From the NCBI GenBank assembly GCA_004194705.1, contig SADC01001342.1:186001-250000 (forward strand): a stretch of 64,000 bases of DNA, written 5' to 3'. Position numbers and translations under genes: made by a program. This DNA is from Ditylenchus dipsaci (lineage: Eukaryota; Nematoda; Chromadorea; Rhabditida; Anguinidae). Below the pieces are notes generated by a model that made no database searches, was not told where the DNA came from, and saw nothing but the letters and a program-made list of their open reading frames with translations. Of the stretch, positions 33,056-59,100 are shown piece after piece; within the stretch, counting starts at the first letter, position 1; each line of letters starts with the position of its first letter.

Positions 33056-33105
33056 CATTTATCTCCAAAATAACCAAATTTATTTAACAAATCAGGTAAT
33101 TATTG

Positions 33106-33476
33106 GGTGGGGGCACACCTCATATTTTTTTTTACAAAACAGCGACACATACTAATTTATTCAATAGTTCCTCAATTCTATCAATCAATATCGCTTTTCG
33201 CACACATAATATTCAGATACTTGCTTCCAAAAATGATAGAACACATCAGGACCGTCAAATAATTTCGCCCTCTGAGAAAGGTGGATTTCTCTTACTGTGG
33301 TATGTAGAGAAGGTTTAAAATGGGAGGCGGCCGTATAGCTAAATATATTCTTTCACATATCAAAAAAAAATAGTGAAAAGCGTTTACGCGAAAATAACAA
33401 AGCCGTAAAAAGAAAAGAGACGTTAAAAAAATTGATCATACACCAAAAATATGAGGTGTGACCCCAACCCAATAAG
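33106..33476. repeat. foldback, TTGGGTGGGGGCACACCTCA ends
   Basis: Ends TTGGGTGGGGGCACACCTCA and, inverted, TTGGGTTGGGGTCACACCTC, with TA next to each end. 370 bp, no ORF. Confidence 0.65.
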
Positions 33477-33500
33477 CACCACAAATCAATAAAAATCATT

Positions 33501-34334
33501 GGATCAAATTGAAAACACCCCTCTAAAGTCTGAAATCTCCCCTTTTTTTTTTTTTTCTCCCCTCTTTTTCAAATTTGCCTTTAAAAACTGAAATTTCCAC
33601 TCTTTTTTCTGAAATCTCCCCTCTTTTTCTGAAATCTCGCCTCTTTTTAATTATTTTCATTGTTGATATATGCGGAAATAAAGATAGAACTGTGTATAGA
33701 ACTGTGAACTGCCCGAAGTAAGAAAAAGTAAGAAAAAATTTGAGTCCATCCTCAATCTAAAATTCCTCTTCGTCAATGACGAAGAGGATTCTTATTTTTT
33801 TTTGACTTTTGACGAAGAGGATTCTTTCTTTGGATTCTTTATTTCTTTAGCTTATGACGAATCGTCATAAGCTAAAGAAACAACAGGTGATTTAGGCTTT
33901 TCGGCTTGTGCTTTAGGCGCAGGTTAGCTTAGGCGCAGGATAGGCCAGCGTACGGAAGGACGAACTCAAACCTTCCCGAACGAGAAAAAAATCAGCAAAA
34001 AATATTTCTCGACCATTTGCATCAAAAGTTCTCCAAAAAGTCGTGGTAAACAGTCGTAGGTCGTTCTTACAAAGACAGCCCAAATTACTGAGGAAACAGT
34101 ACATATTGGTGTATATTTGTGTTCGCCCCTGTAAAGTTGCTCAAAACAACCAAGAAATTAGATTGGGGACCTCACAATAGAGTCAATTAGAGAAAACAGC
34201 ATTGTTCTAAAAAAAGAGCGAGATTTCAGAAAAAGAGGGGAAATTTCGGTTTTTAAAGGCAAATTGAAAAAAGAGGGGAGAAAAAATAAAAAAGAGGGGA
34301 GATTCAGAAATTAAGGGGTGTTTCAATTACATCC
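33501..34334. mobile_element. 834-bp foldback with perfect 9-bp TSD (MULE-type)
   Basis: Ends GGATCAAATTGAAAACACCC and, inverted, GGATGTAATTGAAACACCCC, flanked by identical AAAATCATT at 33492-33500 and 34335-34343. Subterminal CTGAAATCTCCCCTCTTTTT repeats. Nested palindromes at about 33765-33890 (GACGAAGAGGATTCTTT). No transposase. Confidence 0.85.
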
Positions 34335-34446
34335 AAAATCATTAAACAACACATCGAAATCTTCATAAAAATAAATGTCACTACTTCAGGATCTGAAATT
34401 TTATTTAGCTGAAAAAAATTCAAAATCATAGTACGCTATCCAGAAT

Positions 34447-36364
34447 GGTGCGTCCTTATCATAACGCCAAGGATTTCAAAATTCAAATTTCATTATTGCT
34501 TATTGCTCGGTCGGCTGTGTTTCCTTGTATCTTTTTGCTCTCCCTTTTTTCTATTTTTTCTTACAACTTTATGGGGATCCTTTTGTGTCTAAGATTTCGA
34601 AACACTTGTTAATATTCTTTTGCTCGTTTTACATTATTTTTTTAAATTGCTGCGAGCCGTTCACAAATTTAGAACAGAAGTTTAAGTCGTCAGCTGAATC
34701 TCGGTATGGTGCGAAAGATTTGGATGATTTGCGAAGATCGTGATTATGAAGGTTGCACCCGCAATATTTCAAAGGCGTATCGCCCACTTTACAACTTAGA
34801 AGCCTACAATCCATATGTATTTTTTCATAGCAAAGTTTTTACGTTGTCGCCTTGAGTACCAGCAAATCTATTCTTCTATCATCGACCTAAACTAACCTCT
34901 GATTTTGACTTCTCTCAACTTTTTCTCATTCTTTTCATAAAAGTCAAGAAGGGCGTCACCACACAAACAAAATTCTTGGTTTATTCAACACATCAACAGT
35001 AACAATAGCACGAAAAAGGATTAGATGAAAATAACAATCAAAAAAATCTTAATTTTTCTTTAACTCTCCAGTCACCACTTCCATGGCCATTTGCTCGCGG
35101 AATCGATTCATATCTTTCTGAGAAAGTTCACTTGACTTAGTCTGACGCGATCTCGGCAAATCGACAAAGAAAAAACCCAGATTCATAACCGTTCTCTTGC
35201 ATCGCAATTTTCTGTGAAATTTTAAGGGTATAACAAGCAAATTTTTAATATACCTTGTCCATTAAGGGCAGCCAGTTTGTTGCATCCAATCCTTTAACCT
35301 TTTCGAGCTGATCCACTCGCAAAAACTCTCTAAACATATAAACGTGTAGGTGCAAATAAAACAGATAGAGTAATGATCTTACGTGACTTGAGAGAGATAT
35401 CTACTACCATCACCGTGTAGAGAATCATAGTAGACCAGTCGTTGTTTACCAACTTTGACTACCTTAATTGAATTTTACATGCATAATGTAAATTAAAGCA
35501 ATGAGAAGCATTATGAATAGGTATCAAACGAGATCACGGTGGACGCTACAGCCAGTTCCAGTCGGCCTTTCAGTTGGTCCTTTGCATGCGCTTGCTGAAT
35601 TTCATCATCGGATTTTTCTCGACTTCTTCTCTCATCACACGATCAATATCTCTAGCAATAAGCTCGTTTATTGGCCGAAGGCGACATTCTGAGGCATGGA
35701 TTCCCATTGAGTGAAAGTTGATGATCGTTTCTTTGATCATAGGCACCGGAACTGGACGGAATTCCAAACTGAAAACGCTATATTTAGATTATTGGACGAT
35801 TGAAAAAACTAAAAGTAATTACTCAGTACAATCAATGCATGCAAAAACGCGATCCTTATCTTCTTGTAGAGCCGGTATTTAGTGCTTTTACTGCAATCAT
35901 TTGGTTACCAACTTAGTTTGCAGTGGCCTTAAATCACCAGCAATTAAAGCGTCTAAAAATGGTGCAATATTTTACCGAAATCACTTTGGCTGAAGTAGAT
36001 ATTCACCGCATCTTCTTTTGGCATATGGTTATGGATCGTCATTCGAGTGCACTTCTTGTTGTACTGTTCCATAAAGTAGGCAGTCACATCGTTCATCTTT
36101 ACTTTTTTTGTTCTTCAATTGCTGTAGCAGCTCGACCACATCATTGTTAGACCACACTTGAATTTTTCATCTAAACAACCGGAAAAATACACATAAAAAT
36201 CACGCAAGAAAAAACTAGACACCAATAGAAAAACATCACATGAAAATACACCCGCCGCATAAAAATAAGAATGACTTTTGAATTTCAAAATCCTTGGCGT
36301 TATGATAAGCGTTTCGTAACTTTTGTATAATTTTTATACAAAAGTTACGAAACGCCCCAATGCC
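34447..36364. mobile_element. 1.9-kb MULE-type element carrying an Ulp1-like gene; perfect 9-bp TSD
   Basis: Flanked by identical ATCCAGAAT at 34438-34446 and 36365-36373. The left end is GGTGCGTCCTTATCATAACG. The right end (inverted) is GGCATTGGGGCGTTTCG followed by a small hairpin (36305-36350). The arms share CTTATCATAACGCCAAGGAT at both ends. The only gene inside is the minus-strand Ulp1-like protease. No transposase core is seen. Confidence 0.85.
35049..36170 (-). CDS. Ulp1/SENP-like cysteine protease, altered active site, inside a transposon
   Basis: Minus-strand exons: about 36170-35960 (VWSNNDVVELLQQLK ... MNDVTAYFMEQYNKK), about 35880-35825 (DRVFACIDCTE), 35771-35540 (LEFRPVPVPMIKETIINFHS..., not assigned), 35463-35383 (VVKVGKQRLVYYDSLHGDGS), 35330-35254 (EFLRVDQLEKVKGLDATNW) and 35223-35049 (QENGYESGFFLCRFAE then SELSQKDMNRFREQMAMEVV). 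The order LNDV - YYDSL - QxNGxxCG - SQxDMxxFRxxMxxEI is that of C48 (Ulp1/SENP) proteases, which cleave SUMO-like conjugates. Where the family has Asp-Cys-Gly this copy reads Glu-Ser-Gly, so the nucleophile Cys is replaced by Ser. The His-Trp site cannot be read cleanly. A one-base frame break falls near 35140. The gene ends 600 bp inside the element's left end. Confidence 0.7.
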
Positions 36365-36467
36365 ATCCAGAATTTCATAATGCTGTGATTTTATAATGCT
36401 AAAACAGCGAATTGACTTACAGGAACATCAGTTCTGAAGTATTTTAGAATTCTGCAGGGTATCCAGC

Positions 36468-36925
36468 AGTGTGGGCAAATACGTCCGGACTTACGTTCGC
36501 ATCCACGTCCAGTCCATGTCCGTCCAGACTTTTGATGGACGTTGGACGTGGGACTTTTGAAGGACGTCCGGGGTGGACTTGGAGAGGTCTGATGGGCTGG
36601 ACGTCCGGACGGACGTCGGACAAAAGTACCCCTATACATAAATCTGCGGACTTATGGTCCGGATGTATCATTCTCAAAGTAAAATTGATTCCGGAATGGC
36701 GGAATTCCGGCTGCAAAAAATCCTCCGCAAATTGTCATTTGTCTTGAATGGGAAATTCATCCCTTTAACATCCCTTCAACTCTCTCTCACATCTTCCCCT
36801 TCATTACCTCTACGACCCTTTCAGAGAAGAGATGGAGGCGGAAGTGCGACCGACGCCGGACGTGACCAAAAAATGGCCGACGGACGACCTAGAGACGTAA
36901 AAGGTGCCGGACGGACGTGCGGACG
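36468..36925. repeat. GC-rich (GGACGTCCGGAC)n inverted block
   Basis: Dense GGACG/CGTCC iterons (CTGGACGTCCGGACGGACGT at 36598, GGACGGACGTGCGGACGTAC near 36906), unlike the AT-rich surroundings. Arms are diverged; no TSD found. Confidence 0.6.
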
Positions 36926-36939
36926 TACAAAATTTAAAA

Positions 36940-37320
36940 AAAATTCGATTGCGCTTATCAGATTTTCCGTTTGATCGGCTCAATCGCCAGATCTCATCCT
37001 CAACCATTCAGAATACTAAACAACTTTATACCACTCCCAACCAGTAACTAAATACACTCACCAGTGTTTCGGGTAGTTTGGTGGTTCTGAATGGTCCGGT
37101 GTGCAATTTCAGCTGATCTTAGTGGGGTTCTTGATGCGCGCGATCGATTTTCCGTAAAAAGTTCACCAGCCCTTTAGCAAACCCCGAAAAACCGATTTTA
37201 GGGGCTTTTGGCTACTCTAGGGTGAGATTCTGAGCGATTTGGCCGATCAACCGGGAAATCTGATCTTCTCGATCGAATTTTTTGCAAAAAGTTCACCCCC
37301 CCCCCTTTAGTAAACGGGCA
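36940..37320. repeat. GATTGAGCGGATC-family palindrome copy
   Basis: Diverged copy of the repeats at 27170-27425 and 28325-28685, with CCGTTTGATCGGCTCAATCG left and TTTTTTGCAAAAAGTTCACC right. Confidence 0.6.
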
Positions 37321-38530
37321 AACCTTTTTCTTGCCGTAAAAATACTTTTTGATCTAGTTCCACCAAACTGCCCTAATAAACCTCAATCCATCCTAACTAT
37401 TTGAAAATATTAGGCCGTGTCAAAAGTTCTTTTTTTTGGCTTTATATTCACTCGTATTTTCGAATTTGGAAAACGGTTTATCTCGAAAAGATTTCTTTTG
37501 GCGAAAAAAAAAATTCGAAAATGGTAGAATTCGCGAAACAGTATTTTGAAAATGGTAGAATTCGTGAAAATACGTTCAGAATTAGTTTGTTTCTACGAAT
37601 ATAATTGAAGATTTATGCGGTTTTGGGAAAAATAATTTTCGTTGCTTATACAACTTGCAGTGGATATTTTTCTCGAAAATTTTTGTCTGATATTTTTTTG
37701 TGTGAGTTTTACTAGGTTTTTTCTCAAAGTTGTTCATAACTGATTGGGATTTTAAATTTTTTAAACGATGATGGACTATTCAGGTTCTCAAAATACTACT
37801 TTATAAATTCTCTTATTCAAAGATTGCACCGAAATTCACATCAAATCATCTATAATCATTTGCACCTCTATCCATCTTTATTCACGATTCTAAATATCAC
37901 ATCAAAACATAACACGGACTAATAATGGAAATTTCTTATCAAATTTTATCGTTGTATCTGCTGTTGTGCACTTGGTTGAATCCACCACTTCTACTTCGCC
38001 AAAAAGATCTCTGTCACCTGTGAATCCATCCATTTCATTTCATGAAAGCGACTGCTTGTAACATACTTTTACAGATCCAGAGGGAAGTGGTCAAAGAGGA
38101 TCAATCATTTAGCGTCATCTCTTCATGCTAAAAAGGAAAATTTTCCTAACATTTTCCTATTGAATTAGGGTGCCTGCCGAAGGCAGGCAGGTGTGTATAA
38201 AGGGTCAGCCTTGGCCCCTAAACGCTAATGCGAGCACTGAATTGTTCGGGAACCCTTAAAAGGAACCCTTAAAGCCTCCGGGGCGTAGGGGGCTTGGGGA
38301 CTTAGGGTTGAGCTCCACGACACAAGTGCACCCTGGAAAGAATCCGAGCGAACAGCAGCATGTTGGATCCATTCCCAGGGCCTTTATATAAGTCAGCATG
38401 TGGGCTGTTATGGTGTTGCACACTTTTCATCGTTTTTGATGAACATGTCATGTCTTTCCGCCACCGGAAAACATGTTTTTTCGTACTAATTACGACCTGA
38501 AACGTTCGAATTAGGGGTCAAAACTTACTT
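37320..38530. other. no gene seen; small block shared with 21590-21665
   Basis: No supported exon. 38155-38215 (TATTGAATTAGGGTGCCTGC, then CGAAGGCAGGCAGGT) matches about 21635-21672, so it is a dispersed repeat. Confidence 0.45.
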
Positions 38531-38539
38531 TTGGTAACA

Positions 38540-40458: not shown

Positions 40459-40672
40459 CCATAATCCTGCCTACGAGTGTTGTTCTAGAAGAATTATCAC
40501 CACCCAGGTACCACTATTTGAGTTATACACGTTGTACATCTTGAGTCGTACATCTTAAGTACAACTATTATGACACCTAAACAAGAATTTTCTTGGGTAT
40601 TTCAACTATAAGGTGTAAAATATAAATGTAAGGAGGAATTGTTTCTGTGTTCGAAAGCTATCTGTCGAGAAT

Positions 40673-43600
40673 GGGAAACGGTGAATTCGTCAACGTTGAA
40701 TTCATCGAAAGGTGAATTCATCGACGGTGAATTCATCGACAATTTGGTGTTTTGTTTAATAGCCTTTTGTTTGTACCTTTCATGATTCATAAGCCTACAG
40801 GTTCGACTTCCGGTGGCAGCAAACATGATTTTTCTTGACTAAAATAGGGTTTAAAAGTCCAGGAAGCCTCAGGATGCTTAAGAAAAACCGCCTGAGACCT
40901 TCCCTGAACCGGTGTACCTCCAGAATCCGACATTTTGGATTTTTTCGAAAGTAATAAAAAGCATTGTATTCGGTAACCGGACAATTTGCACTCTTAACCA
41001 GATATGTCGCGCGACATTTTGCACTCTGAGCCAAATTTGTCGTCGTCTTCCTTTCGCATACCAAAGAGATTCGTTTCAAAAAGCACTAGAGTGCAAATTG
41101 TCGCGCGACAAAAAGCACTAGAGTGCAAATTGTCGCGCGACTAAAAACGCTAGAGTGCAAATTGTCGGGTGGCATCGGACTCAGATCCCGGAAACTGAGA
41201 ACACGGACAACTCGGCTTTTCAAAAGCTCATCTCAAAAGAAATTCATATATAGGACAACTCAACACAATTATACTGATCTTTTGAATACCCGCCTAATGC
41301 GGAATTCATTTTTAGGACAACTCATCCCAACTAAAACTCATCTTTTTGACAATTGGGCGGGAAAATTTTGAATTATGGGACAATTGAATTGAAATAAGGT
41401 TTGACTTTCTGGCAACTTGACCCTTTCGTGTTTCAATGTAGGCATATCAGGCTTTTTGTCTTTCTTGTCATTAATGTTTGTTTCCCTGTCTTTTTAACTT
41501 TAACTTACCCTTTCCGTATCTTTTAACTGTGCACTTTTGCCCGAAATTCAAATTTTTCGTCAATTTTACAATTAAACCATACTATCGTACGTAAAATAGT
41601 CTTACAAATCCTGTTTAATAAGACCTTAATTACGATTTTATCTACCCGAAATCCCAATATTCTGGGTAGGTACCACCTGGCCAGCTGGACCACAAAACCA
41701 AGTGGTCGTCCACTTGGATCAAATTTTTTTTACGTTTTCGGATTCCGAAACTCATTTTTTCAACTGATTCGAGCATGCTGAAGATGGTTTGATAGTAGTA
41801 AAATTACGTTTTATCGACAAATTTTTGAGTTATTGCTAACGATTGATTTTGATAAATCAATCGTTAGCAATAACTCAAAAATTTCTTGATAAAACGTAAT
41901 TTTATTGTTATTAAACCATCTTTAGAATGATCGAATCAATGCAGAAAATATGCTTTGGAATCCGAAAACGTAAAAAAAATTTTGCTCCAAGTGACGACCA
42001 CTTGGTTTTGGTGGTCCAGCCGGCCAGGTGGTACCTAACCCAGTTTTTCGGATTTCGGTGAAAAAAATCGCAATTTCAGTCCTAACAAACAGCATCTACC
42101 ACACGATTTTGCATATGATAAGATGGTTTGTTTTCGATTCAATTTTTTTTTAATTTTTAAGGCCATCCAGGTGGATAACGACCTGACCATGAGATACCTA
42201 CCCTGGATTTTGGGGTTGGGTGGGTTAAGTCACAGTTTCGGTCTTATCAGACAGGATTAACCACACGATTTTACGGATGAAATCATTATTAATTTTTCGA
42301 TATGACCACTTTTTATTTTTCTGGCGAAAAAATTCCGGCTCAGCCAGGTGGATATACATCTACTATTGGTACCCACCCCAGATTTTGGAATTTCGGTGAG
42401 CAAAATCACAATTTTAGTCTTATCAAACACGATTCTCCACACGATTCCACATATCATAGCATGGTTTATTTTTTAACTTAAAAAAATTTTATTTTTCAGG
42501 CCATGCACATGGATACCCGCCTGACCAGTAGCTATCTACCATGGATTTCGGTTTTCGAGTGGCTGGAATCGTAATTTTGGTCCTGACAAACCCAATTCCA
42601 CACACAATTTCGGGTTAGAAAAAATGGGTTGTTATAATTTTAAAGAAATTTGTATTTTTCGGCTATCCAGGTGGATATCCACCGACCACGTGGTACCTAT
42701 CCCAAGTTTGAGGTTTATGTGGGCAAAATCGTAGTTTTAGTCACAATAAACCGGTTTTCGTGAAGCGATTTTAGATCAAGTTACGTGATTGTTTTTGATT
42801 TTGGCTAAGTTTTATTTTTCGAAGCATTCAGGTGGATATCCAAGCCTATGATAAAGAGTAATACTCCATCCATTACCGACAAACACAGACAAATTGTCAT
42901 CGAATAGACAACGAATTAAGTATAAAATAGGTGAGTCCTACAAAAACAGACAAAAAATTACTTCAAAAGTACAAAAGACCAATTTCAAACAATCAAATTA
43001 TTTCCCGCCCAATTGTCAAAAAGATGAGTTTTATTTGGGATGAGTTGTCCTAAAAACGAATCGTGTTAAGACCAGTTTTTATTTATTTGAATTGTTTTTG
43101 GACCAATTTTGTATGATCTCAATTATTTTTGTGCCAGTTGTCCGAATCTGAGTTGTCCTATATATGAATTTATTTTGAGATCAGTTGTCCGAAAGCTGAG
43201 TTGTCCGTGTTCTCAGTTTCCGTGATCTGAGTCCGATGCCACCCCAAATTGTCGCGCGACAAATATATAACGACAATTTGCACTCTAGTGCGAAATGTCG
43301 CGCGACATATTTGGCTAAGAGTGCAAATTGTCCGGTTTCCTTGTATTGTTCCCGAAACCGTCTCTTAAGCAGGGTCTGTAAATTCGACAGTGGTTTAATG
43401 GTATTTTTGCAGTTTTTGTGAATCTAGCAGAACCTTACTACTGTACCACTGTCAAACCGTCTTTAGGATACTAAAAATAGCGCAGAAAACAGGTTTTGGA
43501 ACCTGAAAAACATAAAAAGTTGCACCAAGTGTGTGACCAGTTGGTTTGGTTAGTGCATGGATTATCCAGTAGAACTGAGGTTGGATTAGAGAAAAACATT

Positions 43601-43728
43601 TTGAATCAAAAAAGGTATGAAATAAAATTTTCGATGAATTCAACTGTCGATGAATTCATCTTTCGATAAATTCACCGTTGATGAATTCACCGTCGATGAA
43701 TTTACCGTCGATGAATTCACCTAATGCC
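40673..43728. mobile_element. 3.1-kb MULE-type foldback, (GTGAATTCATCGAC)n arms, 9-bp TSD with one mismatch
   Basis: Ends GGGAAACGGTGAATTC and, inverted, GGCATTAGGTGAATTC, flanked by GTCGAGAAT (40664-40672) and ATCGAGAAT (43729-43737). Arms carry GTGAATTCATCGACG iterons. A nested foldback spans about 40974-43341 (GGTAACCGGACAATTTGCAC ends, TTGTATTC/TTGTATTG flanks), with GTCGCGCGACA and GACAACTC blocks in its arms. A palindrome at 41690-42010 (CCAAGTGGTCGTCCACTTGG type) lies inside that. No gene is supported. Confidence 0.75.
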
Positions 43729-43757
43729 ATCGAGAATAAACAGTGTTTGTATTAAAC

Positions 43758-43912
43758 GGCGACCGGACAAAACAGGTTTTTAAAAGTATTTGTCGCACGA
43801 CAAAAACGGTTTTTTTATTGGTCAAATCGGCCGAAACAGCCGAATTGACCGATAAAAAAACCGTTTTTGTCGCGCGACAAATACTTTTAAAAACCTGTTT
43901 TGTCCGGTTGCC
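43758..43912. mobile_element. 155-bp near-perfect hairpin with perfect 9-bp TSD
   Basis: Ends GGCGACCGGACAAAACAGG and, inverted, GGCAACCGGACAAAACAGG, flanked by identical GTATTAAAC at 43749-43757 and 43913-43921. The centre has GGTCAAATCGGCCGAAACAG. The terminal text resembles the nested element ends at 40974. Confidence 0.9.
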
Positions 43913-43919
43913 GTATTAA

Positions 43920-44268
43920 ACGCTGAAAAAAGCGTCAAAAACATAGATAACAGGCAGAAAAGGCGGCAACCCAAGTAAATAAGCGGTACAATAATTCAAA
44001 AATGGCACTAGGTCATTTCGTTCCGTGGGGTTGGTACTTATGTACCTGGGGGCCCTTTTTGGTTAACTGTAAATAGTGCTTAAACGTCTCCTAAGTTATT
44101 TCTATACGCTAAAAACGATATAAAAGTTCTTTCCTAACAGTTTCCGCACTAAAAAGTTGGGTTTTCATAAAAAAGATTGGGTACCAAAAGTTGAGCTTTA
44201 AGTACCCGATTTTTTTGCGCCAGCCTGTATAAGTTCAAAGCTCACCTATTTCACGGAGAAATTCACTA
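43920..44268. other. no gene seen
   Basis: No supported exon, RNA gene or inverted repeat pair in this stretch. Confidence 0.45.
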
Positions 44269-44604
44269 CAGTAAAACCTCGTTATAAGATACACCCAATA
44301 TAAGATACCGTATTTTCTTTAATAATGACCCCGGGGTCATTATTTTTCAACCCCTGAAAAATTCCGAAATTGTCAATCAAAAATGACCTTAACTCTGAAA
44401 TCCTAGTCAAAAATAAGGGGGGGGTCATTATTAGAGAGGGGGTCATTATTAGAGAAAATACGGTAAACCTCGTTATAAGATACACCTGGGTCCGGTCCCA
44501 AGCTAAATAACTCCCGTCAAACTAGCCCCCTATATAAGATACACCACGTTATAAGATACAGCTGGGGTCAGTCCCTGGGTGCATCTTATAACGAGGTTCA
44601 ACTG
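44269..44604. mobile_element. TA-flanked MITE with a second TA-flanked MITE inside
   Basis: Outer ends CAGTAAAACCTCGTTATAAG and, inverted, CAGTTGAACCTCGTTATAAG, flanked by TA. Inner element 44308-44463 has CCGTATTTTCTTTAATAATG ends, also TA-flanked, with a GGGGTCATTATT core (sister of 8273 and 23288). Confidence 0.8.
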
Positions 44605-44696
44605 TAATGCTCTTTATTATTAAATAAATAAGTGTACAATGTGCGATTTCAAGACACGCTAATAACAACCATGCCAATGTAATGATATTTTTCATT

Positions 44697-46296: not shown

Positions 46297-46594
46297 CTAA
46301 TAGGACAAAAATAGAAACATCGAAATACACCATCAAAAACATATCCACTAAAAATTGTGGTACACAGATTTGGTTTTAAAATACCGCCGTTCAATGCCCG
46401 AGTTTAAAAAATAATTTTTATTACTCTAAAACTTTTAAGGCTAAAATTCATTTGCGCCCTCAAAATGCTCATTTACGCCCTCAAATTAATTATTTACGGG
46501 TGAGATCGTATTGTTAACATTTGAATTGAGCAAATTGACAATTCAATTTTTTTACGATTCAGCTCAATTTTTTTCAGCTTTTTGACGATTCAGC

Positions 46595-47300
46595 CATGGG
46601 TGGGCAAAGATCAGATCAGATCAGATCGATCTAGATCAGATCGAGATCAGATCAGATCGCCAAAGATCAGATCAGATCGATCTGATCGATCTGATTCATT
46701 TTGTCATCCAAATGTTTTGTCTCGAAAAGATTTCTGTAAGTTTGAATGTTCGATCCGGTTTTGTATTAAATTATTTGAGCTGAGTTTATTTGTAGCACTC
46801 ATTTTTCATTGAACACCACCAAGTTCTTATTATTTTTCTATTATTGTGTAGTTTTCAGTCGAATCTCTTATGCAATACTTTTATTAATTTTTCTAGTGAA
46901 TATGCAAGGAACTTTAAAATGTTATTTAGAATAGGTCTAACCTTAAAATTAAATCAAAAGAGAGCTTAACGAATGCCCTACTATAAGTGTATTTACAGTG
47001 TACGGTTCAAGAGATGTTCGCAAATCTTGAACAATGTTTTTAACATGACTAAATGTACGTTCTGCACTGCCATTACCACCAGGCAAAGAAAACAAAATTT
47101 TGCAAAACGCGCAAGGTCAGGCAAAGAGTTTTCCTGACTTTTCCAGAAGTCAAACTTACAGAAATCTTTTCGAGACAAAACATTTGGATGACAAAATGAA
47201 TCAGATCGATCAGATCGATCTGATCTGATCTTTGGCGATCTGATCTGATCTGATCTAGATCTGATCTGATCGATCTGATCTGATCTTTTGCCCACCCTTG
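46595..47300. mobile_element. 706-bp hAT element, (GATCAGATC)n ends, perfect 8-bp TSD
   Basis: Ends CATGGGTGGGCAAAGATCAG and, inverted, CCAAGGGTGGGCAAAAGATC (i.e. ...CAAGGGTGGGCA). TSD GATTCAGC at 46587-46594 and 47301-47308. Both ends hold runs of AGATCAGATC. The CATTTTGTCATCCAAATG...TTCTGTAAGT stretch occurs as direct copy at 46698-46744 and inverted at 47155-47200. Confidence 0.85.
46928..47165 (-). pseudogene. hAT transposase C-terminal remnant
   Basis: Minus strand reads DFWKSQENSLPDLARFAK, then (one-base shift) LFSLPGGNGSAERTFSHVKN and IVQDLRTSLEPYTVNTLIVG before TAA. The FWKS ... LPDLARFAK ... LPxxNxxAERTFSxVKxI order is the hAT dimerisation region of ZMYM/KRBA-like hATs. Only the C-terminal roughly 75 aa remain. 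Confidence 0.75.
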
Positions 47301-47744
47301 GATTCAGCACATTACTTTTCAGCTTTATGAAAATTCATCACATTTTTCCCGGTTTTCTTGAAAATTCATCACACATTTTTGCTTTTCGTTGACAATACAT
47401 CCAAAACGCGATTTATCTGGCGGATTATTCAACTGAAATCTAATTCAGCTTAAAGCTAACTCACCAAAAGTAGGACTCAGCACATTGTTACTGTTCTTTG
47501 TCACTCTTCAGCTAGTTTTTTATATAACTTAACAAAAAGCACAGTGGGCGTGGACACTCATTTGGGCAAAACTCATTTCGGCTGCCTTATTTGTGCCCCG
47601 TAGGTGAATATTAGATTTTTTTGAGTTTTTATACCATTTTTGTCTTCTTTCTAACTTTTAAAGCAACTTTCACAACGATAACATATGCTTAATTATTCTT
47701 TCCCGCCTATTGTTCATTGATCCCTCTCCCTCTTAGCTGCGGCG

Positions 47745-49195
47745 GAGTTAAATCAAACAATGCTATCCTACCCAAAATCATGCGCTGAACGCGGTTTGAC
47801 AATACCAAAATACCGAATTCACTAGCCAAAACCTCAGTATCAGGGTAGCGACGTATTCTAGACGAATACCTCTCTTTACCAAGATTAACTTCATACAATT
47901 CGAAGCTTTTGACTATGTTTGCCTATCTAAACCACCATTCTTGGACGCCTTCAATCGCTCTCCAACCTCATGAGCTGAGCTCAGCACCCAAGCAAAGTAC
48001 AGATTTTGTATACCCGATTCTTCTCTATGTGGTTACCCCGCTTGAAAAAAATTGTCTTTATTTCTTTTATTGGCTTTTATTTCCAAAATTGACATGTTTC
48101 TCATCCTCCATCTACCTCTAGGGTAGCCACGCATATAGCCAAGGAGTACCCGCTGGTCAAGTAGATGTCCACGTTGATGGCCTAAAAAGTTAAAATTTCT
48201 TATGAATAAAAAATAAACCATTTTGCTAACTTAAAATTGTGTGAGGAATTGGGTTTGTTATGTCCGAAATCGCGATTTTACACACTCCAACTTTAAAATA
48301 CCACCTGGCCAGGTGGATGTCCACCTGAAGAGGGTATGAATAAAAAAGTTAATTTAAATATTTCTATTTAAATTTGGGCTTGTCAAGATCAAAAGTGCGA
48401 GTTTACCTTCCCAAGCCCAAACCTGGAGTTGCTACCATCTGGACAGGTTCATAAAAAGGTAACTCCAAGGTAGGGGTATATTCATCCAAATGGCGTAAAA
48501 AGTCAAATGCTTGTCTTTTTATATCTACAATTATGCTAAAAAAAGCTATGCGCTCAGGTGGATTCGAACAAGCAACCTTACATCACCAATTAGAATCGCT
48601 TAGAACTCCATCCAGAGTGACCAAACCAAGTGGTCGACCACTTGAATCAAATTTTTTTTCACGTTTTCAGATTGCAAAACAATTTTTCCGCACTGATTTG
48701 AGCATGCTGAAGATGGTTTGACAGTGGTAAAATTACGTTTTATCGAGAAATTTTTGAGTTATTGCTAATTCTTGATTTATCAAAATCAATCGCAAGCAAT
48801 AACTCCAAAATTTCTACATAAAACGGGGTTTTACCACTATCAAACCATCTTCAGCATGCTCGAATTAGTGCAGAAAAGTTGTTTTGGAACCCTTGAACGT
48901 AAAAAAAATTTTGGTCCAAGTGGACGACCACTTGGTTTGGTTGACTCTGGATGGAGTTCTGACCGATTCTAAGAGGTGATGTAGAGGTTGCTGGTTCGAA
49001 TCCACCTCGGCGCATACCTTATTTTTATTATAATTTTGAGTGTTTGAGTGTTGTGGAGGTCCATATGAGGCATTCTGATATTAAAAATACGTCGCTACCC
49101 TGATACTGAGGTTTTGGCCAGTGAATTCGGTATTTTGGTATTGTCAAACCGCGTTCAGCGCATGATTCTGGGTGAGATAGCATGGTTTGATTCAA
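47745..49195. repeat. foldback with AATACCGAATTCACTGGCC-type arms and B-box copies
   Basis: The left arm at 47750-47870 (AATGCTATCCTACCCAAAAT, GCGTTTGACA-type) pairs with 49085-49195. Inside is another CCAAGTGGTC palindrome (48615-48950) flanked by GCTCAGGTGGATTCGAAC at 48549 and TTGCTGGTTCGAATCCACC at 48988, the latter containing a perfect Pol III B-box. Confidence 0.6.
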
Positions 49196-50143
49196 TTTTT
49201 CTTACAACCTGAGGTGGATACCTGTTAGGATGGGTACCTACCTACCTTTGAGGTAGATTGTGCAGGAAAACCAGGTCAAACTAACGAAATAAAATAAAAA
49301 GTACACTCAACTTCAATGAAACTGGTAAAAAAGAGCTGGGCTAACAAAAAGCACAATCTATATGCCAAGAAAAATCAACAGTAACGATAAAAACGGGAAG
49401 GCATTCAACAATCTCTTTAACAACGCGAAAGCTAGTCAAAAGATAACAAACTAACGAGTTGAATACAAATTCTGCTGAATTTTCAAAAAACCGGGTAATA
49501 ATATGCTGAATTGTCAAAATGCTGAAACAAATGTGCTGAATCGTCAAAAAATCAAAACCAAATATGCTGAATTGTCTTGTGAAGAATTTCGATGTTTTGA
49601 ACTGTCAAAAGTTCGAATTTTCAATAAGTTCAACTATCATAAGCTCAATTGTCAAAAGATGAATTGTCTGCTTGCAGAATTCCAATGTTAACAGTCTGAT
49701 GTCACTCATTATTTACGCCCTCAAATTTTATATTGCCATTTTTCTGTAAATTTTGTTGCAATTTTGTAAATATTTTCACACCAGTGTGTAGCCCTGAATC
49801 TTGGCTTTTTAATGAGCTATCAAATTTTCTGAATGATATGAAAAATGACGAGATTTCGAAGTTACAAAAAAACCATCAACTTTTTAAAAAATTTTTGAAA
49901 CCTCGAAATCTCGTCATTTTTCATATCATACAGAAAAATTTGATAGCTCATTAGAAAGTCAAGATTCAGGGCTACACACTTATATGAAAACATTTATGAA
50001 ATTGAAACAAAAATTCACAGAAAAATGGCAATATAAAATTTGAGGGCGTAAATAATTAATTTGAGGGCGTAAATGAGCATTTTGAGGGCGCAAATCACCT
50101 ATAGCCAACTTTTAATCCGTAAATTTTTTTGGAAATGTAAAAA

Positions 50144-53100
50144 ATGGCTGAGAATGGTATGAAGAAGACTTCTATCAACATCAATGCTTCTTTTTGGACA
50201 AATCGACTTGTTTGGCTGCTTTGTGCTTCTGTGATAAGCCTAAAATGTCTGCTTATACGCTCGTATCGCTCCACTGACTTTGAGGTAAGTTATTTATGGA
50301 TAATTATTTCGGCAATCGGACATTTAGCAAAAAAATTGAAATGTTGCTATGGACCAATCAACCGAAAGTCAAATGATCAAATATAATGGCTCATTTATAA
50401 ACGTTGTCGTCCTCGTTGTCGTTGTCGTCGTCGTTGGAATATTTTTTTTATAAAACCCCTTTTTTTCGCCAACGACGACGACAACGACGACCTATTTATA
50501 AAAGGATAATATTTTTTTTGCCCATAGAATACTCGCTTTTGCCCATAGAATATTTTTTTTGCCCATAGATTGGGTATGCCCATAGAATACTTGTTTTTGC
50601 CCATAGAATACTTGTTTGTGCCCATAGAATTTAAAGGGCCCATAGAATACTCGTTTTTGCGCCTAGAATTCTCGTTTTTGTCTCATAGATTTTAATGCTT
50701 ATAGTATTGTATGATAGTATCGTTTGTGGCAGTAGTATCGTTTTTGGCAATAGATTTTGATGTTTATAAAAAAAAAACGAACACATCTCCAGTCAAACGA
50801 TTTGAACAAGCTTCTTAACGAGAGACATATCTTTCACCTTTATCATTAATATCTTAATACCATATTTGCTCTATTAACTCCCTATGCTCTAATAACCCTC
50901 TACCCTTCATTTTTGGACAAGGATTTCAGAGTAAAGACCATTTTGATTAACAATTGCAAGATTTTTTAGGGGTCGAAAAAACTTTGCATGTGAGGTTAAT
51001 AGAGGAAATACATATATGTTCCCTGAATCTTCCAACAATCCATGTTCCCATATCAGTATCACATTTAATTTTCTTTGAACCAAAACGACATTTTACAACG
51101 CTCAACAATAACAAGTCTACAACGAAACATTTACCCTTGAGCAGGTCTTCCTCTCTTTCTTTTCTTTCCCAGTATATCAGCCACAGCATGCCTCGGGAAT
51201 TGAATGGCTCCTTGCTTCTTCATGATCAGCAGGGGTTGGCCAGACTTGCGGACAATATTTTGCGGATGCGTGTTTCCGGACGTGATTATTGCGGACAAAG
51301 CTTTGCGGATGAGGTTTTGCGCCTAAACTTTTGCGTCCGCAAATCTTGCGGACGCAAGATTTGGGGACGAACATTTGCGGACGAGAACTTGCGGACCAAG
51401 ATTTGCGCACGAGAATTCGCGAACTTCATATAAGCATCGCCTAAGTCAGAGATTCGACTAACTTAGTTTTTAATGATGTCATCCTTCACTCCGGCTTGAG
51501 ATACCTTCTTTTTTCTGCTCCTTTTCTGCCAAACTTCGGTTTATCCGCAAAATTCGGTCCGCAAATGTTCGTCCGCAAATGTTGCATCCGCAAAATTTGG
51601 TCCGCAAAGTCTCGTCCGCAAATCTTTGTCCGCAATTTTTCGTTCGCAAATGTTGCATCCGCAAAATTTGGTCCGCAAGTGTTGCGTCCGCAAAATTTTG
51701 TCCGCAAGTCTGGCCAACCCATCAGCAGCGCATGTTTGCATACTCTTTTTTTGACCCCTCATAGCAAGTGCACGAATAGTAAATTGGCCAGAGCAAAGAC
51801 CGGAGAATCACATAGAAGAGCGACTTTAACTCCTGAAGCAGATTATATGACACCAGATTTAGCGATTCATCGGCAAAGACCCACCAAGTACTAAACCCAA
51901 GGGACGAGATGTAGCCCACCATTGAAAAGATCATAGTGCTGGACGATATCTTGATCAGTCACCTTCTTTGATGGCATCAGGAAAAGGCTTCTGCTTCCGT
52001 AAGTTCGACGACCTTTTTCTCCCAGTAGATAAGCTTCGCGATAAAGAGATTGTGGAATTGATGAAACTGAGGCCACAATCTTGAAAAAATACTTACGAGC
52101 ATATCCTGCAGAATCAGTTTCCGGTTTTTTCTTCCTTTACTTTATCGCGAATGACCTGTTTCACTTTGGGAGAGATTACGCCCTGCGCAGTTGATTCATG
52201 GCTGGAATGCTCCCCACTTGACTCGACAATAATGTCTTGATTGCTACTGGGCCTTCGAATCCTGAGCTTTGCTGGGCAAACACATCCTTTCTTTCTGGAC
52301 GCAGCGCAACTCCGACTTTTAATAACATGTTTATGGCAGAGAGATGTCCCTTTGCTGAAAGCATGGATAAGAAACTAAGAATGACAACAAAAGCTTACAA
52401 ATTCCACTTGTTTAACAACCAAACGCTATCCGGATTCTTTTCCACTGCAGTAGATGGCTTTCTGCTTCGTCACCACTGAATTTGATCATTTGTGCGTAAA
52501 CGAGAGCAGGCTTATCCTTTCTTCGGCCAGACACTCCTTGTAGAGACATAGCTGAATATAGCAACCATATAAGGACATATATAAGCAATTCAAATTCTAT
52601 GGGCAAAAACGAGTATTCTATGGGCAAAAACGAGTATCTATGTGCACTTTAAATTCTATGGGCAAAAACAAGTATTCTATGGGCATACCAAATCTATGGC
52701 CAAAAAAAATATTCTATGGGCAAAAACGAGTATTCTATGGGCAAAAAGATTTAACACCCTTTATAAAGAATCCAACGCCAACGACAACGACGACGCCAAG
52801 GACAACGAAATTTTTTATTGAAAAGTAGACAAATTTCGCATTTTTAGTCGAGCTTTCGAGTGAAAACGCGTGGAGAATATAGTTAATCCTTAAAATTCTG
52901 ACTTAAAATGCAAAATTTGTCTGATTTGGAAGAAAAATTTTCGTTGTCGTTGGCGTTGTCGTTAAGTTTTTCATAAATAGGTCATTGTTGTCGTCGTCGT
53001 TGGCGTTGTCGTTGGCGTAAAAGTGCCTTTAAGAAACATTTTTTCCAACGACAATGACGACGACAACGACAAAGTTTATAAATGAGCCATAAGGAAACAC

Positions 53101-56100
53101 AAAAACAGAATAGCAAAAACTCTAAAAATGTTGTAAAAGGCCCTATGCCGGATTCGAACATAAGATGTAAGGCCTTTTCTCCGATGAGCGCAGATTTTTA
53201 TGTTTTTTATGACGGAACTGTCTTTTTTCTTCTACTCAAAAATTACGCGTTTAGTGTCATCGTGTAGGTAAGATTCAGGGTTACCAATGGGGCTATTAAA
53301 AGAGAAGTTGTGTAATTTTGTCCTTTTGTTATTACTATCTAGACCCCTCGGAAAACTGTCAATTGAGTGTTTGGGCTTAAACAAAAGCCTGCGATGTGCT
53401 GAGTACGATAGCATCAAATTCAGTCCACTTTTCTATGAATTTCGCCGAGCTGTGGCCTCCCGAAGTTTGACACTCAGAAAAACTAGTACATTTCTCAAAA
53501 CAATTTATGCTTACCAGGGCTAGCAACCTTTAAAAGCCTTTTTGGTCTTACTTCCCACCGTTTTTTCGGAAATTTTAGTCTGAAAGGGTCAATTTTTTCA
53601 AACTTTTAAAAACATAAATATTTCAGGTTCATCGAAATTGGATGGCCATTACACACCATTTACCTTTATCACAATGGTACTATTCTAATGGTATCTCCAT
53701 ATTTTGTCCTTGTTGAAAATTTTAATCCAATGATTTTCAGTTTCTGAATGGACACTTGATTACCCTCCCTTTTTTGCCTACTTCGAGAAGTTGCTGTCGG
53801 TCCTTGCCAATTATTGGGATCCAGCCATGTTAGCCTTGCAGCAAGACCCGTACTTTTCCAAGAATACCCTTTACTTCCAAAGAGGATCGGTTATTGCCGT
53901 GGACTGTATTTATGTAATTCCCATTTTTTGGTTTTGTTTGATTATTATTATTGTTTTTCAGGCATTATCCTCAATTGCCCTAGCCAACAATATTGGTGAG
54001 TCAATAGAATGGATGAAAGAGAAAACTTACTTGAAATATCGCCTTAAATTTGGACTTTTATGCGTGCTGCTGTGCAATTCAGGCCTAATCCTGCTGGATA
54101 ATGTTCATTTCCAGTACAACTCTTTTCTATATTCTTTTCTTTTCTTGTGCATAGTTGCAATTCTGGCTGGACGATTGTTGACTGTGAGTGTCTTTTTAGA
54201 AATTCAGATCAATATTAGTGCAGGGTGAGAATTACACGTTCTGTACGTACAAAGTAGCCCTAAAAACGGCGACCACTTAATTTTTTTTAAAGACCATACT
54301 TGTTGATGCAAATGAGAATTTGACAAATTCAAATGCGCGCGGGACACTTCTCTTTCGTCTCGCAATCTACTCTTTGGAGTTATTTCGAGCGACTCAAAAG
54401 AGTAGAGTGCGAGACGAAAGAGAATTGTCCCCGCGCATTTGAATTTGTCAAATTCTCATTTTCATCAACAAGTATGGTCCTTTAACGATTTTTTTCGCCA
54501 CCATGGCCGATTTTCGATCTTTTTCTGATAAGCCTCACAAAATAACATGATAAAAGGAAAAATCCCAAACTTTCAAAAAATTTTGCAAAAAAAATTCCAT
54601 GCACCTATTTTCAGTCAAAACTCGATGTAATAACCTCGAAAAAGGTCTTTTTCTCAGTCAGCTGGATCCGACACTTTGAAAAATTTTTTTCACTATTCTA
54701 TTTTGACAGTCTGGTCTTAAAAATCACAAGGAACTCCAATCTTCTAAAAAATCTAAAAAAGAGCATATGAAGTTTTGACTGTAGGAAGGCGTTTGAACAG
54801 GAAATTTGGACCACTAGATTGTCTAAAGAAAAACTACTTAAAGTAAAACTAGTATAACTACTAAAACTACCGAACAAAACTTACCCAAACCTTCTGGTTG
54901 ATTTTCAGGCAGCTTTTCTATTTGGTGTGCTGCTCAACTTCAAACACATTTACTTGTATTACGTGCCTGCTTTTGTGTTCTACTACCTCCAATTCTACTT
55001 GTGGCCAGTCAACCTGGCTGCTCTACCCAAACGAGTAACATGCCTCGCCTGTGTTCTAGCAACACCACTCCTTTGTGCCTTTGGCCCATTTATATATACA
55101 GGTTGACCATAACTATTTGGGCAAGTGTTTATATCATGATTCAGGTGGCATGGATGGATTTCAGCAGATGTTGTCACGACTATTCCCCTTTCAACGAGGG
55201 TATACATATTTACTGCTTTGCGCTTTTGTACGATCAATGAAAAATCGGGTTTCAAAACTGGGTTTTCTCGCAAAATTTCTGTCCGGTCCTACGGGACTGG
55301 GTTTTGAGCAGGGCGTAATCAGCAGTAAGCCAAAAAGGGGCCAGTAAATCCCATTTCCCCAGAAACCTACAACTATTTCCCTGGTCACACTCTTTGGTCT
55401 TGATCACCGGTTCACACTTATTTCCGCCAAAATCATTTCCGCCAACTCATTTCCGCCAACTTATTTCCGCCAAACTCATTTCCGCCAACCTTATTTCCGC
55501 CAAACTCATTTCCGCCAACCTTATTTCCGCCAACCTCATTTCCGCCAGTTTTGGCCACTTCAAGTTAGTTACCAATTTTAACCCAAAATTTTAAGTACAA
55601 ATTTTCCTGAAATTTTGCTGTTTCTGTTACGAACTCATTTCCAAGCTTTTCTGTGTGGCATTTTTGTACTCCACAGCAGTGTTGGGCACTCGTACTTTGC
55701 TCGTACTTGATATTTTGCATTTTTGGTTTGCAATTTTGTTTTTTTGTCTAAAACTTTTTTTATGTGCGGCTTCAGGACATTCACAGCTACCATTTTGCAA
55801 AAAAAATAAACTGGTTTCAAGATTAAAAAACGTAAATTATCATCATTTGAAAGGCAAGTACGAGTGCTCGTACTTGTGCTCGTACTTGCCTTTAAAATGC
55901 TGATATCTTACGTTTCTTAATCTTGAAACCAGTATTTTTTTTTGTGAAATGGTAGCTGTGAATGTCCTGTAGCCGCCTATCAAAAAAATCAAAAAAAAAA
56001 ATACAAAATATCAAGTACGAGCAAAGTACGAGTTCCCAACACTGCTCCCCAGCAGGGTTGGCAGAGTGTAACTTTTTCGGCCTCATTATAGTTTCTAAAA

Positions 56101-59100
56101 GCCACACCCCAGCTAACCGTGTTTCACAGTGATTTAATATAAAACAGCTTTGCATCTGTATTTCGGTAAACTTTATTCTGTTAAAATAAATCAACTTTCC
56201 ATAACACGCAAAAGTTAGCAATAACAGGCAAAATCAGTTAAAATCTATGACAATTTTTTTACCACCTTAGCCTTACCACCACAGATTCGAACGCAACGCC
56301 AGTTTTGAATTGTCTTTGCCAAATTTGCATAGCCCTTACGCATTTCATAACCGTTGCACATCACAAGCGGCTTCCCCTTACTCGTTTTGCTGATCGATGC
56401 CATTTTCTACAATAAATTTACATACCAAAAAAATATAGCTATGAAAAGCAGCAACGCAAACAAAGGAGTACACAAATGAGAAAAATGAGAATTTGATAAT
56501 CCAAAAACTGTTATCTTAAGGTTTTCATAAAAAGTGGCGGAAATGAGGTTGGCGGAAATAAGGTTGGCGGAAATGAGGTTGGCGGAAATAAGGTTGGCGG
56601 AAATGAGTTTGGCGGAAATAAGTTGGCGGAAATGAGTTGGCGGAAATGATTTTGGCGGAAATAAGTGTGAACCTTGATCACCGTCAACTTTTTTGAACTT
56701 ATTTTGCGGTCAAAGATGATGTTTTATATTGCTATTTTGGGGTTTTTTATATTAAAATATAGCTCAAGATCAAAGCTTTCTTGTATATCAAAAATATTTT
56801 GAAAAATGTATATGATGGTACAACAGTTGTCCGTGTCATGGTCAGTGTATATATTTTTTTTCTTTTTTTTTTCTTCCTCGAGGTGCATCGACCGTGACAT
56901 TGACCGGCTTACAACTAAATCAAGTGTAAAGCTACGCGTAAAATGTGTGGCTGCAGTGTGTGTCTGCATCTTTGGCGGCAATGAGTGCATACAATGTGAA
57001 ATCACACGCTACAGTCACACACCACACTCTGCAGGCACACGCTACAGCCACACTCTGCGTACAATTAAAAGCACTTGATTTTTATTGGGAGAATTTATAC
57101 TTAGTTTCCCAATCATTGCTCAGCAACATACTATGTCATACTTTTCGGTGTTTGAAGACCGAAAAGTATGACATAGTATGTTGCTGAGCAATGATTGGGA
57201 AACTAAGTATAAATTCTCCCATTAGCATTTTTATTTACCATAGCGTTTTATGAAAATTAAGAAAAAAACCTTTGACAACACTTCAAAACAACTGCGAAAA
57301 TTAAAATAAGACAAAAAGATGGAAAAAAATATGAACAGCGAACGATTGCGCAAATTCACATTGCGCAAAGTTCAAATTGCGCAAATGCAGATTCCGCAAA
57401 AGCAAATTGTAAAAAATCCTGATAACGCTAAAGGTTGCTGGGACCAATGTTGGGCATACATTTTTGAAACGAGGCCTAGAATTTAATTTTAGGTGTAGTG
57501 TTATTAGAAACTCAGTAAAAAAATTCGTACGTAAATCTAATGATTAGGTAAAAAAAATTGAATCGGCGGGGGACTACCAGACCACCGTGAGCATGGTCCT
57601 TCAAATCGCTTCACAATACTCAATTTTGGTAATATGGTTGGGCTAATGGCAGGCCCTTTGAGATGGCTTGGACATATTCCATGACCCAGTGCTAGTTAAT
57701 TCCCAAAGATGCCGAATTATCTAGGGTCGACTGTATTGCAATTAAATTTTTTTTAACAAAATCCTAATAAAGTTTTCTTCCAATTTTGCAGCCTAACTCA
57801 CGCCTATTGGGCCCCTAACTTCTGGTCGCTCTACAATTTTATTGACTTTTTGCTCTATCAAGTGTCAGTGTTGGCAGATAGAGTGGGCAGGTTGGATTGC
57901 AATCCAAATTACATGAAATGTCCTCTGCAACCACCTATGTACACTCAAGGTCTTGTGATGGTTTGTCATTTTGCCCTGGAATTTCGAGTTAATATTGCGT
58001 TAACTATAGGAATATGACCACTCTGTGCTGCCCAACATCACTCCATCCATCAGTTTGTTGCTTGTGCTCATCTCAATTGTGTCAGTAGCCATTCAAATCT
58101 TGTTTTTCAAAAAGAATGGCAAAAGTAGAGGGGAATCATTTATGGTTGCAATCGCTTTGAGTGCCTATGCATTCTTCTTGTTTGGATGGCATGTGCATGA
58201 AAAAGCTTCTTTGATGATACTCCTTCCAGTCACTTTGCTCGTCTTTCAGGTATATGGGATAGTGTAGTAATAAATAGATATCAAGAAGAAGAGGTGGACT
58301 AATTACTTTAATAAGCACTTTTTCGATAGTTTAGTATGTAGAATGCTGGTATCATAAGAATGCTGGTACCATAAATTTTTTGAGTTCAGGCTGGGTATGA
58401 AATATGAGTTTTATCAAGTCGTATATCCTCTTAAAATAAGCTTATTTTTGAGTTTATTGTAGGAGCAGAATACGATTTTGCAGTGCTCTCGACTATTTTT
58501 TGTTTTCTTAAAGGGGCATACCAGCGCATTACATGGGGAAAAGGCAGGTACCAGCGGTTCTTTTCTTTACCACTATTTTTTTACATGCGTTCTCATCTAG
58601 ATTTTTTAAGTTTTTTGTCTAGTTTTTAAACGCAGTATAAGGTCATCTATAGGGTTGTTAAGCGAAAAGCCGAAAAGCCGAAAAAATTTCGTCTAAAATA
58701 GCATTTTTATCTATGTTGAGATCAATTTTTTTTCGTAAAGTCTCACATTAAAAGATAGCCCGAAATATCAGCTTTCCAATGACACCAAAATTGCGTTAAG
58801 GTCATATAAAAATCATGGATATTTATTTAGAAACATTTTCGGCTTGAAAAGCCGAAAGTTTTTTTATTTTCGGCTTTTCAAGCCGAAAATGTTTCTAAAT
58901 AAATATCCATGATTTTTATATGACCTTAACGCAATTTTGGTGTCATTGGAAAGCTGATATTTCGGGCTATCTTTTAATGTGAGACTTTACGAAAAAAAAT
59001 TGATCTCAACATAGATAAAAATGCTATTTTAGACGAAATTTTTTCGGCTTTTCGGCTTTTCGCTTAACAACCCTAGTCATCTATGTCAGATTTGATGCGA

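What the first reader, a model, noticed from the sequence alone, without database searches (positions are those of the whole stretch)
33501..56673. A family of foldback transposons united by 9-bp TSDs and 5'-GG ends
Six elements, unrelated in body sequence, share one rule: ends start GG and the flanks repeat for 9 bp. They are 33501-34334 (AAAATCATT), 34447-36364 (ATCCAGAAT), 43758-43912 (GTATTAAAC), 46439-50106 (AACTTTTAA), 55409-56673 (TTGATCACC), all perfect, and 40673-43728 (one mismatch). 50504-52759 (TTTATAAA+A/G) fits with 8 of 9. Known: 9-bp TSDs and long inverted ends are Mutator-like traits, and Drosophila FB elements are long-arm foldbacks linked to MULE-type transposases. Inference: one MULE-like machinery moves many sequence-unrelated foldbacks here.
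Basis: partly seen in the sequence, partly recalled or inferred. Interest (0 to 1): 0.9.

Follow-up and report, generated by a model that had tools for sequence, protein, structure and literature searches.

The report
Mutator-type foldback transposons in a nematode
The repeats are real jumping-gene insertions of the Mutator type, already known from other nematodes and mosquitoes; several related transposon lineages, rather than one machine, seem to have made them, and some duplicate 8 bases of target instead of 9.

Summary
Related empty sites carry the 9-mer once for two elements. Other copies of five of the seven families sit in other 9-bp repeats. The genome is a nematode, almost certainly Ditylenchus dipsaci. 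Mutator-like (MULE) transposase has 115 matches. In 17 of 30 fetched MULE loci the gene lies between GG-starting, tandem-unit inverted repeats with 8- or 9-bp duplications. The 55409 family has coding relatives inside the same ends. One machinery for all is not supported: TIR units are shared only by near-identical transposases, and the 55409 family makes 8-bp duplications in 11 of 12 other copies. Nor are the families wholly unrelated: ends of several are alike, and three elements share a hairpin. The architecture is that of Tm1 of root-knot nematodes and Muta1 of Aedes, both published. So: new members of a known kind, with duplication length biased by family as a modest extra.

The parts
33501..34334 (.). 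non-autonomous foldback, TSD AAAATCATT
   Evidence: two of four other sites fetched show other perfect 9-bp TSDs, L005 CTAAAAATC and L007 ATTTAAAAG; the copy at C1307:154221 has the same TSD and lies in the duplicated block
34447..36364 (.). element with cap pair GGTGCG / GGCATTGGGG and offset palindromic arms, TSD ATCCAGAAT
   Evidence: four other copies were sampled, one (C118, about 215703-217210) shows the same cap pair, TSD unclear there and unresolved in the other three; many copies of the right end
40673..43728 (.). foldback, caps GGGAAACGG / GGCATTAGG, TSD 9 bp with one mismatch
   Evidence: three other copies sampled: C396 (CTATCTTAC, same caps) and C220 (CATTTCTTG, caps GGGGAACGG / GGCATTAG) exact at 9 bp, C1309 unresolved; both can also be read as 8 bp in a shifted register
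41167..43244 (.). foldback nested in 40673-43728, repeat of 9-10 bp (CAAATTGTC); not in the finding
43758..43912 (.). 155-bp MITE-like foldback, TSD GTATTAAAC
   Evidence: 13 other copies read: 9 bp exact in 4, 8 bp exact in 4, 9 bp with one mismatch in 2, unclear in 3
46439..50106 (.). foldback, caps GGCTAAAATTC / GGCTATAGGTG, TSD AACTTTTAA
   Evidence: of 12 other sites fetched four show both ends: L060, L063, L068 with 9 bp, L066 with 10 bp
50504..52759 (.). foldback, caps GGATAATA / GGGTGTTA, TSD 8 of 9
   Evidence: of 10 other sites fetched four show both ends, all with perfect 9-bp TSDs: L070, L075, L077, L080; related empty site in the window
51233..51720 (.). element nested in 50504-52759, GGGTTGG ends, 8-bp repeat ATCAGCAG
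   Evidence: empty in L073 and L081, two loci of one C1256 copy, with one base changed in the 8-mer
55409..56673 (.). foldback with 144-bp TIRs, TSD TTGATCACC; the family usually makes 8 bp
   Evidence: coding relatives L044, L045, L046, L051
38545..40445 (.). foldback, TSD AACATGTGG; not in the finding
   Evidence: related empty site in L046
27826..28925 (.). foldback, TSD ATTTCAAAA; not in the finding
   Evidence: ends resemble 46439, 33501 and an element end in L017
13745..14866 (.). foldback whose arms hold the unit in both orientations, TSD GTTTTATTC; not in the finding
12001..12377 (.). short foldback, TSD 8 of 9; ends resemble 50504 and MULE-coding L032
32573..33055 (.). candidate GG-ended element with an exact 8-bp repeat CATTTATC
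   Evidence: no other copies looked for
33095..33480 (.). candidate GG-ended element with an exact 8-bp repeat ACAAATCA
   Evidence: no other copies looked for
16600..16800 (+). related empty site for 50504-52759 (TTTATAAAA once)
23984..25157 (+). open stretches that look by eye like FLYWCH- and MULE-type exons; Pfam finds neither
   Evidence: no element ends found

Best explanation
The elements are mostly non-autonomous members of several MULE lineages of the Phantom/Muta/Tm1 type in a nematode genome. Each end is a short cap starting GG, often different at the two ends, followed by tandem units that form a long inverted repeat. A MULE transposase of the matching lineage recognises the units, cuts at the GG caps and inserts with an 8- or 9-bp stagger, giving the flanking duplications. 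Shown: caps, duplications, related empty sites, dispersed copies at other duplications, and MULE genes inside the same architecture (for the 55409 family inside the same TIRs). Inferred: binding to the units, cutting at the caps, and movement in trans by the matching lineage.
For: Ends and TSDs. Empty sites carrying the 9-mer once: 50504-52759 and 38545-40445, and an 8-mer once for the nested 51233-51720. Copies with other TSDs. PF10551 has 115 matches with 150 of 504 candidates scored. 17 of 30 fetched MULE loci are bounded by GG-starting tandem-unit TIRs with 8- or 9-bp duplications. L051 has a MULE domain (28 bits, cut-off 27.6) and weak FLYWCH (18 bits, cut-off 23.6) inside 55409 TIRs. TIR units follow the transposase lineage (Mantel r 0.55, p 0.0001, 17 elements). 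TSD length differs between families (49 cases, permutation p about 5e-5).
Against: Only the 55409 family has coding relatives with the same ends; its MULE matches in L044 and L045 are below the cut-off and the L046 piece tested has none. The 50504 and 12001 families resemble MULE-coding L032 only weakly. TIR matches of 46439 in L016 and of 33501 and 27826 in L017 lie beside the MULE gene and do not enclose it. For 33501, 34447, 40673, 41167, 43758, 46439, 38545, 27826 and 13745 no coding partner is shown. One search asked for an 8- or 9-bp repeat, so other lengths could not appear. L009, L010, L023 and L024 read exactly as 8 or as 9 bp, depending on where the cap starts. Transposases 75-90% identical share TSD length in only 43% of 7 pairs. 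The Mantel signal comes mainly from near-identical pairs.
Confidence: 0.85

Rival explanations
1. One MULE transposase moves all the sequence-unrelated foldbacks, recognising little more than GG ends.
For: GG ends shared across families; 9 bp in most window elements.
Against: Several transposase lineages with their own TIR units; 8-bp duplications in the 55409 family and in 6 of 6 bounded loci of one transposase clade. Cross-mobilisation is not excluded.
Confidence: 0.08
2. The 8-bp families belong to another superfamily (hAT, P/Galileo or Merlin), and only the 9-bp ones are MULEs.
For: 8-bp duplications are usual in some of those superfamilies (recalled).
Against: A MULE domain lies inside 55409-family ends, and PF10551 loci themselves show 8-bp duplications. 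Not tested for 51233-51720, 32573-33055 and 33095-33480. No hAT, P or Merlin family search was run.
Confidence: 0.05
3. The 9-mers are chance or assembly artefacts.
For: The assembly holds a 99% duplicated block, and the published D. dipsaci draft is larger than the measured genome.
Against: Exact 9-mers at random flank pairs: 5 of 398,728. Different TSDs at copies on other contigs, and related empty sites.
Confidence: 0.02

Closest known systems
Tm1, Mutator/Foldback family of Meloidogyne (PMC3169594; abstract, parts 1 and 2 of 3 of Results, sections 9 and 10, and part 1 of 2 of the Discussion read)
   Same: Plant-parasitic nematode; composite TIRs of about 14-bp tandem units with asymmetric terminal caps; TSDs of 8-10 bp, mostly 9 (45 of 53 elements with both caps); FLYWCH-MULE transposase; mostly non-autonomous and MITE-like copies; an empty site shown. 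The 50504-family caps (GGATAA / GGGTAGT in L075) resemble Tm1 caps of M. hapla (CGGATAA, and CCTACCC, whose reverse complement is GGGTAGG).
   Different: Here many families with different units coexist in one genome, and TSD length is biased by family; Tm1 is one family of low copy number.
Muta1 and Muta5 of Aedes aegypti (PMC5225508; section 7 and found passages read)
   Same: 145- and 151-bp TIRs of a terminal motif plus tandem 12- or 15-bp units; TSDs of 8 or 9 bp; hundreds of derivatives, most of which share only the TIR; Muta1 is called a type 2 foldback element, and its movement was shown in yeast.
   Different: Muta1 alone makes both lengths (8 bp in 21 of 60 events, 9 bp in 39 of 60); here the 55409 family and one transposase clade are nearly always 8 bp.
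Phantom group of MULEs (PMC6446971; found passages and table rows read)
   Same: Invertebrate MULEs, some with FLYWCH; TSDs of 8-10 bp where given.
   Different: The hosts listed for that group include no nematode; no tree against reference Phantom sequences was made here.
Plant MULEs with multiple tandem TIRs (PMC3310237; abstract and outline seen)
   Same: Repeated TIR sequence at MULE ends, mostly in tandem.
   Different: Described as extra long TIRs; here short units are repeated; plant lineages.
Drosophila FB and Galileo (recalled; Galileo's P-type transposase is also stated in the Tm1 paper)
   Same: Foldback architecture with internally repeated arms.
   Different: Galileo carries a P-type transposase.

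Membership tests
MULE superfamily | MULE transposase domain between the element's own inverted ends | tested here: met
   Met for coding relatives of the 55409 family (L051 over the cut-off) and for 17 of 30 MULE loci; not shown for the other window families
MULE superfamily | target site duplication of 8-11 bp (range from PMC6446971) | tested here: met
MULE superfamily | long terminal inverted repeats | tested here: met
   weak and offset in 34447-36364
MULE superfamily | complete DDE triad and activity | not tested
   only domain fragments were read; no activity assay
Phantom | FLYWCH zinc finger N-terminal to the MULE domain | tested here: inconclusive
   L051 18 bits, below the 23.6 cut-off; not tested for the other loci
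Phantom | placement with Phantom transposases in a tree | not tested
   the tree holds only rows of this genome
Tm1 | asymmetric caps outside tandem-unit TIRs | tested here: met
   the 55409 family has near-symmetric caps
Tm1 | Motif C unit (CGATTCAGTATCGC in M. incognita, CGTTTCAGTATCGC in M. hapla) | tested here: not met
   read by eye only: none of the units printed is Motif C; Motif D was not looked for

The most novel reading that the evidence does not exclude
In one animal genome, MULE lineages share a GG cleavage cap but have replaced their tandem recognition units, and some have settled on different stagger lengths (8 against 9 bp). The ends would then be modular, with a conserved cap for cutting and fast-evolving units for recognition, and stagger length would be a property of the transposase lineage.
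Probability: 0.35. Interest if true: 0.45.

Novelty: new member of a known kind. Interest (0 to 1): 0.3.

Why it matters
It places a large, varied set of foldback MULEs in a crop-parasitic nematode outside Meloidogyne. The set offers pairs of transposase and TIR unit at many degrees of relatedness, and families with different stagger lengths, which could show how MULE transposases choose ends and set the length of the duplication. It also corrects a 9-bp rule to 8 or 9 bp by family.

Tried and rejected
Empty sites through the duplicated block: window 31290-49088 aligns in one piece with C1307:152001-169820, so no element is missing from either copy over that stretch; the rest of the block was not fetched. 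Coding partner of the 46439 family at C158, chosen because an arm lies about 2.4 kb from a MULE match: the other end is not in 122200-123250, and the four other copies measured are about 1 kb, so the link was dropped. TIR matches of 46439 in L016 and of 33501 and 27826 in L017 lie beside the MULE gene, not around it. The match of 50504 ends in L029 was not followed up. Ends around the window's presumed MULE exons: none at 22-27.6 kb, one weak candidate at 7-11.5 kb. hAT, P or Merlin for the 8-bp 55409 family: rejected by the MULE domain, without a search for those families. Species guess Pratylenchus penetrans: dropped for Ditylenchus dipsaci. Matching with indels shifted the ends and was replaced.

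Weak points of the tests. One search compared 548 pairs of ends, of which 35 reached p 0.005 or less; three of the 35 are the two ends of one element (L009, L011, L032), the control keeps only base composition and the first two letters, and some links run across the two groups that I name. One search counts exact cases only: near matches, the 10-bp L066 and single-copy elements are left out, and window copies, L068 (found by its 9 bp) and register-dependent loci are included.

Searches for earlier description of these foldbacks. In those listings (open-licence papers only, and only the best-ranked rows where many matched) I saw Tm1 and Muta1 but nothing on foldbacks of Ditylenchus. PMC13359780 was seen only as a listing and one passage.

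Full report
What was checked. The seven elements of the finding were read at their coordinates. All begin with GG and end with CC; five have perfect 9-bp flanking repeats and two have one mismatch. A scan for any pair of GG ends with similar inverted ends and an exact flanking repeat found 9 hits at 9 bp (8 distinct elements), with 0-2 for 13 of the other 15 dinucleotides; AA and TT gave 7 and 4. At 8 bp GG stands no higher than CA (6 each) or AA (9). Three block-shuffled windows gave no candidate with inverted ends; GG pairs with a maximal 9-bp repeat alone numbered 11 in the window and 0, 0 and 2 in the shuffles. Random flank pairs in this window match over 9 bp in 5 of 398,728 draws. The scan adds 13745-14866, 27826-28925, 38545-40445 and 41167-43244 as perfect cases. 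It did not list 50504-52759, which its low-complexity filter leaves out, nor 34447-36364, whose outermost ends do not match. One search also lists GG-ended candidates with exact 8-bp repeats: 32573-33055, 33095-33480 and 51233-51720.

Where it is. The window is part of a 227-Mb assembly in 1359 contigs. Nematode SL1 occurs 58 times exactly and the reversed control 0 times. A transposase fragment of this genome is 100% identical, over 88% of its length, to a Ditylenchus dipsaci protein. The published D. dipsaci draft has 227.2 Mb, 1,394 scaffolds, a largest scaffold of about 3.6 Mb and 37.5% GC (whole text read). I take the species as D. dipsaci; the numbers of contigs differ slightly.

Are the repeats duplications? 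Yes. A related empty site for 50504-52759 lies in the window at 16600-16800 and carries TTTATAAAA once. One for 38545-40445 lies in L046 and carries AACATGTGG once. One for the nested 51233-51720 is seen in L073 and L081, two loci of one copy, with one base changed. Other copies sit in other repeats. 46439 family: 3 at 9 bp and 1 at 10 bp, of 12 other sites fetched. 50504 family: 4 at 9 bp, of 10. 33501 family: 2 at 9 bp, of 4. In the remaining sites both ends were not found in the stretch held. 40673 family: 2 at 9 bp, of 3 sampled, both also readable as 8 bp in a shifted register. One window copy with 33501-like ends (15381-15820) has no repeat. L068 of the 46439 family was found by a 9-bp scan and so is not neutral for length. 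For the 43758 family 13 other copies were read without regard to flanks: 4 exact at 9 bp, 4 exact at 8 bp, 2 at 9 bp with one mismatch, 3 unclear. For the 55409 family 12 other copies: 11 exact at 8 bp, 1 unclear. The window copy, with 9 bp, is the exception. For the 34447 family 4 copies were sampled: one shows both caps, with an unclear repeat, and three are unresolved.

What moves them. PF10551 (MULE) has 115 matches; only 150 of 504 candidates were scored. Of 30 fetched MULE loci, 17 show both ends: GG-starting caps, mostly GGGTAC-like at one end and GGGACAC- or GGGATC-like at the other, then tandem units, then a flanking repeat. The scan asked for a repeat of 8 or 9 bp, so other lengths could not appear. 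I read 9 bp exact in 5 (L010, L014, L020, L023, L033), 9 bp with one mismatch in 2 (L029, L032) and 8 bp exact in 10. In 7 of the ten both caps read GGG; in L013, L025 and L036 one cap is read one base shorter or longer. L009, L010, L023 and L024 read exactly as either length, depending on the cap. Six of the ten belong to one transposase clade, which is 8 bp in 6 of 6. In the other 13 of 30 loci no ends were found in the stretch held. The 55409 family has coding relatives (L044, L045, L046, L051) inside the same ends. The MULE domain is just over its cut-off in L051, below it in L044 and L045, and not found in the L046 piece tested; FLYWCH in L051 is below its cut-off.

One machinery or many? 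Transposase identity and TIR-unit similarity go together (Mantel r 0.55, p 0.0001, n 17), almost wholly because pairs over 90% identical share units and others hardly do. A quick tree of 83 columns shows several lineages and a minimum of 3 changes of duplication length. Over 49 exact cases the share of 8 bp differs by family (permutation p about 5e-5), and the 55409 family differs from four 9-bp families (11 of 12 against 0 of 13, the window copies counted; Fisher p 2.7e-6). These groups are partly related and some cases depend on the register, so the p-values are guides. Against a strict rule by lineage, transposases 75-90% identical share duplication length in only 43% of 7 pairs. Cross-mobilisation is not excluded. 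The simplest reading is several MULE lineages, each with its own units.

How unrelated are the families? Less than stated. Ends of 33501, 27826 and 46439 and an element end in L017 form one group; 50504, 12001 and MULE-coding L032 form another, with some links across. 40673-43728 and 46439-50106 share an internal hairpin, part of which is also in 38545-40445.

Known kinds. Tm1 in Meloidogyne was described in 2011 as a Mutator/Foldback family with composite TIRs and 8-10-bp, mostly 9-bp, duplications. Muta1 of Aedes has the same architecture, duplicates 8 or 9 bp and was shown to move in yeast. The finding is therefore a new set of members of a known kind.

Limits. Binding and cutting are inferred. 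For most window families the coding partner is not identified.

Noticed in passing
window 31290-49088 and C1307:152001-169820 (L083-L085): 99% identical block about 65 kb apart on one contig, ending inside the 46439-50106 element; perhaps uncollapsed haplotypes joined in scaffolding, or a true tandem duplication. Its other end was not fetched.
   Followed up: partly
window 58650-59075: Inverted repeat of 208 nt per arm, 100% complementary, with a 10-nt spacer; a young hairpin element or a sequencing artefact.
   Followed up: no
window 39574-39865, 41693-42010, 48620-48941: A related internal hairpin of about 300 bp in three different foldbacks, perhaps a nested MITE or a shared core.
   Followed up: partly
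flanks of the 43758 family (L106-L125, L140-L145): Many of this family's duplications start with G and end with C around an A/T-rich core, by eye a weak palindromic target preference.
   Followed up: no
window 15381-15820: A 440-bp hairpin with 33501-like ends but no flanking repeat.
   Followed up: no
window 4256-6659, 45192-45527, 53734-54225: Gene pieces beside the transposons: AAA-ATPase-like domain, RCC1 repeats and an ALG6/ALG8 glycosyltransferase.
   Followed up: no
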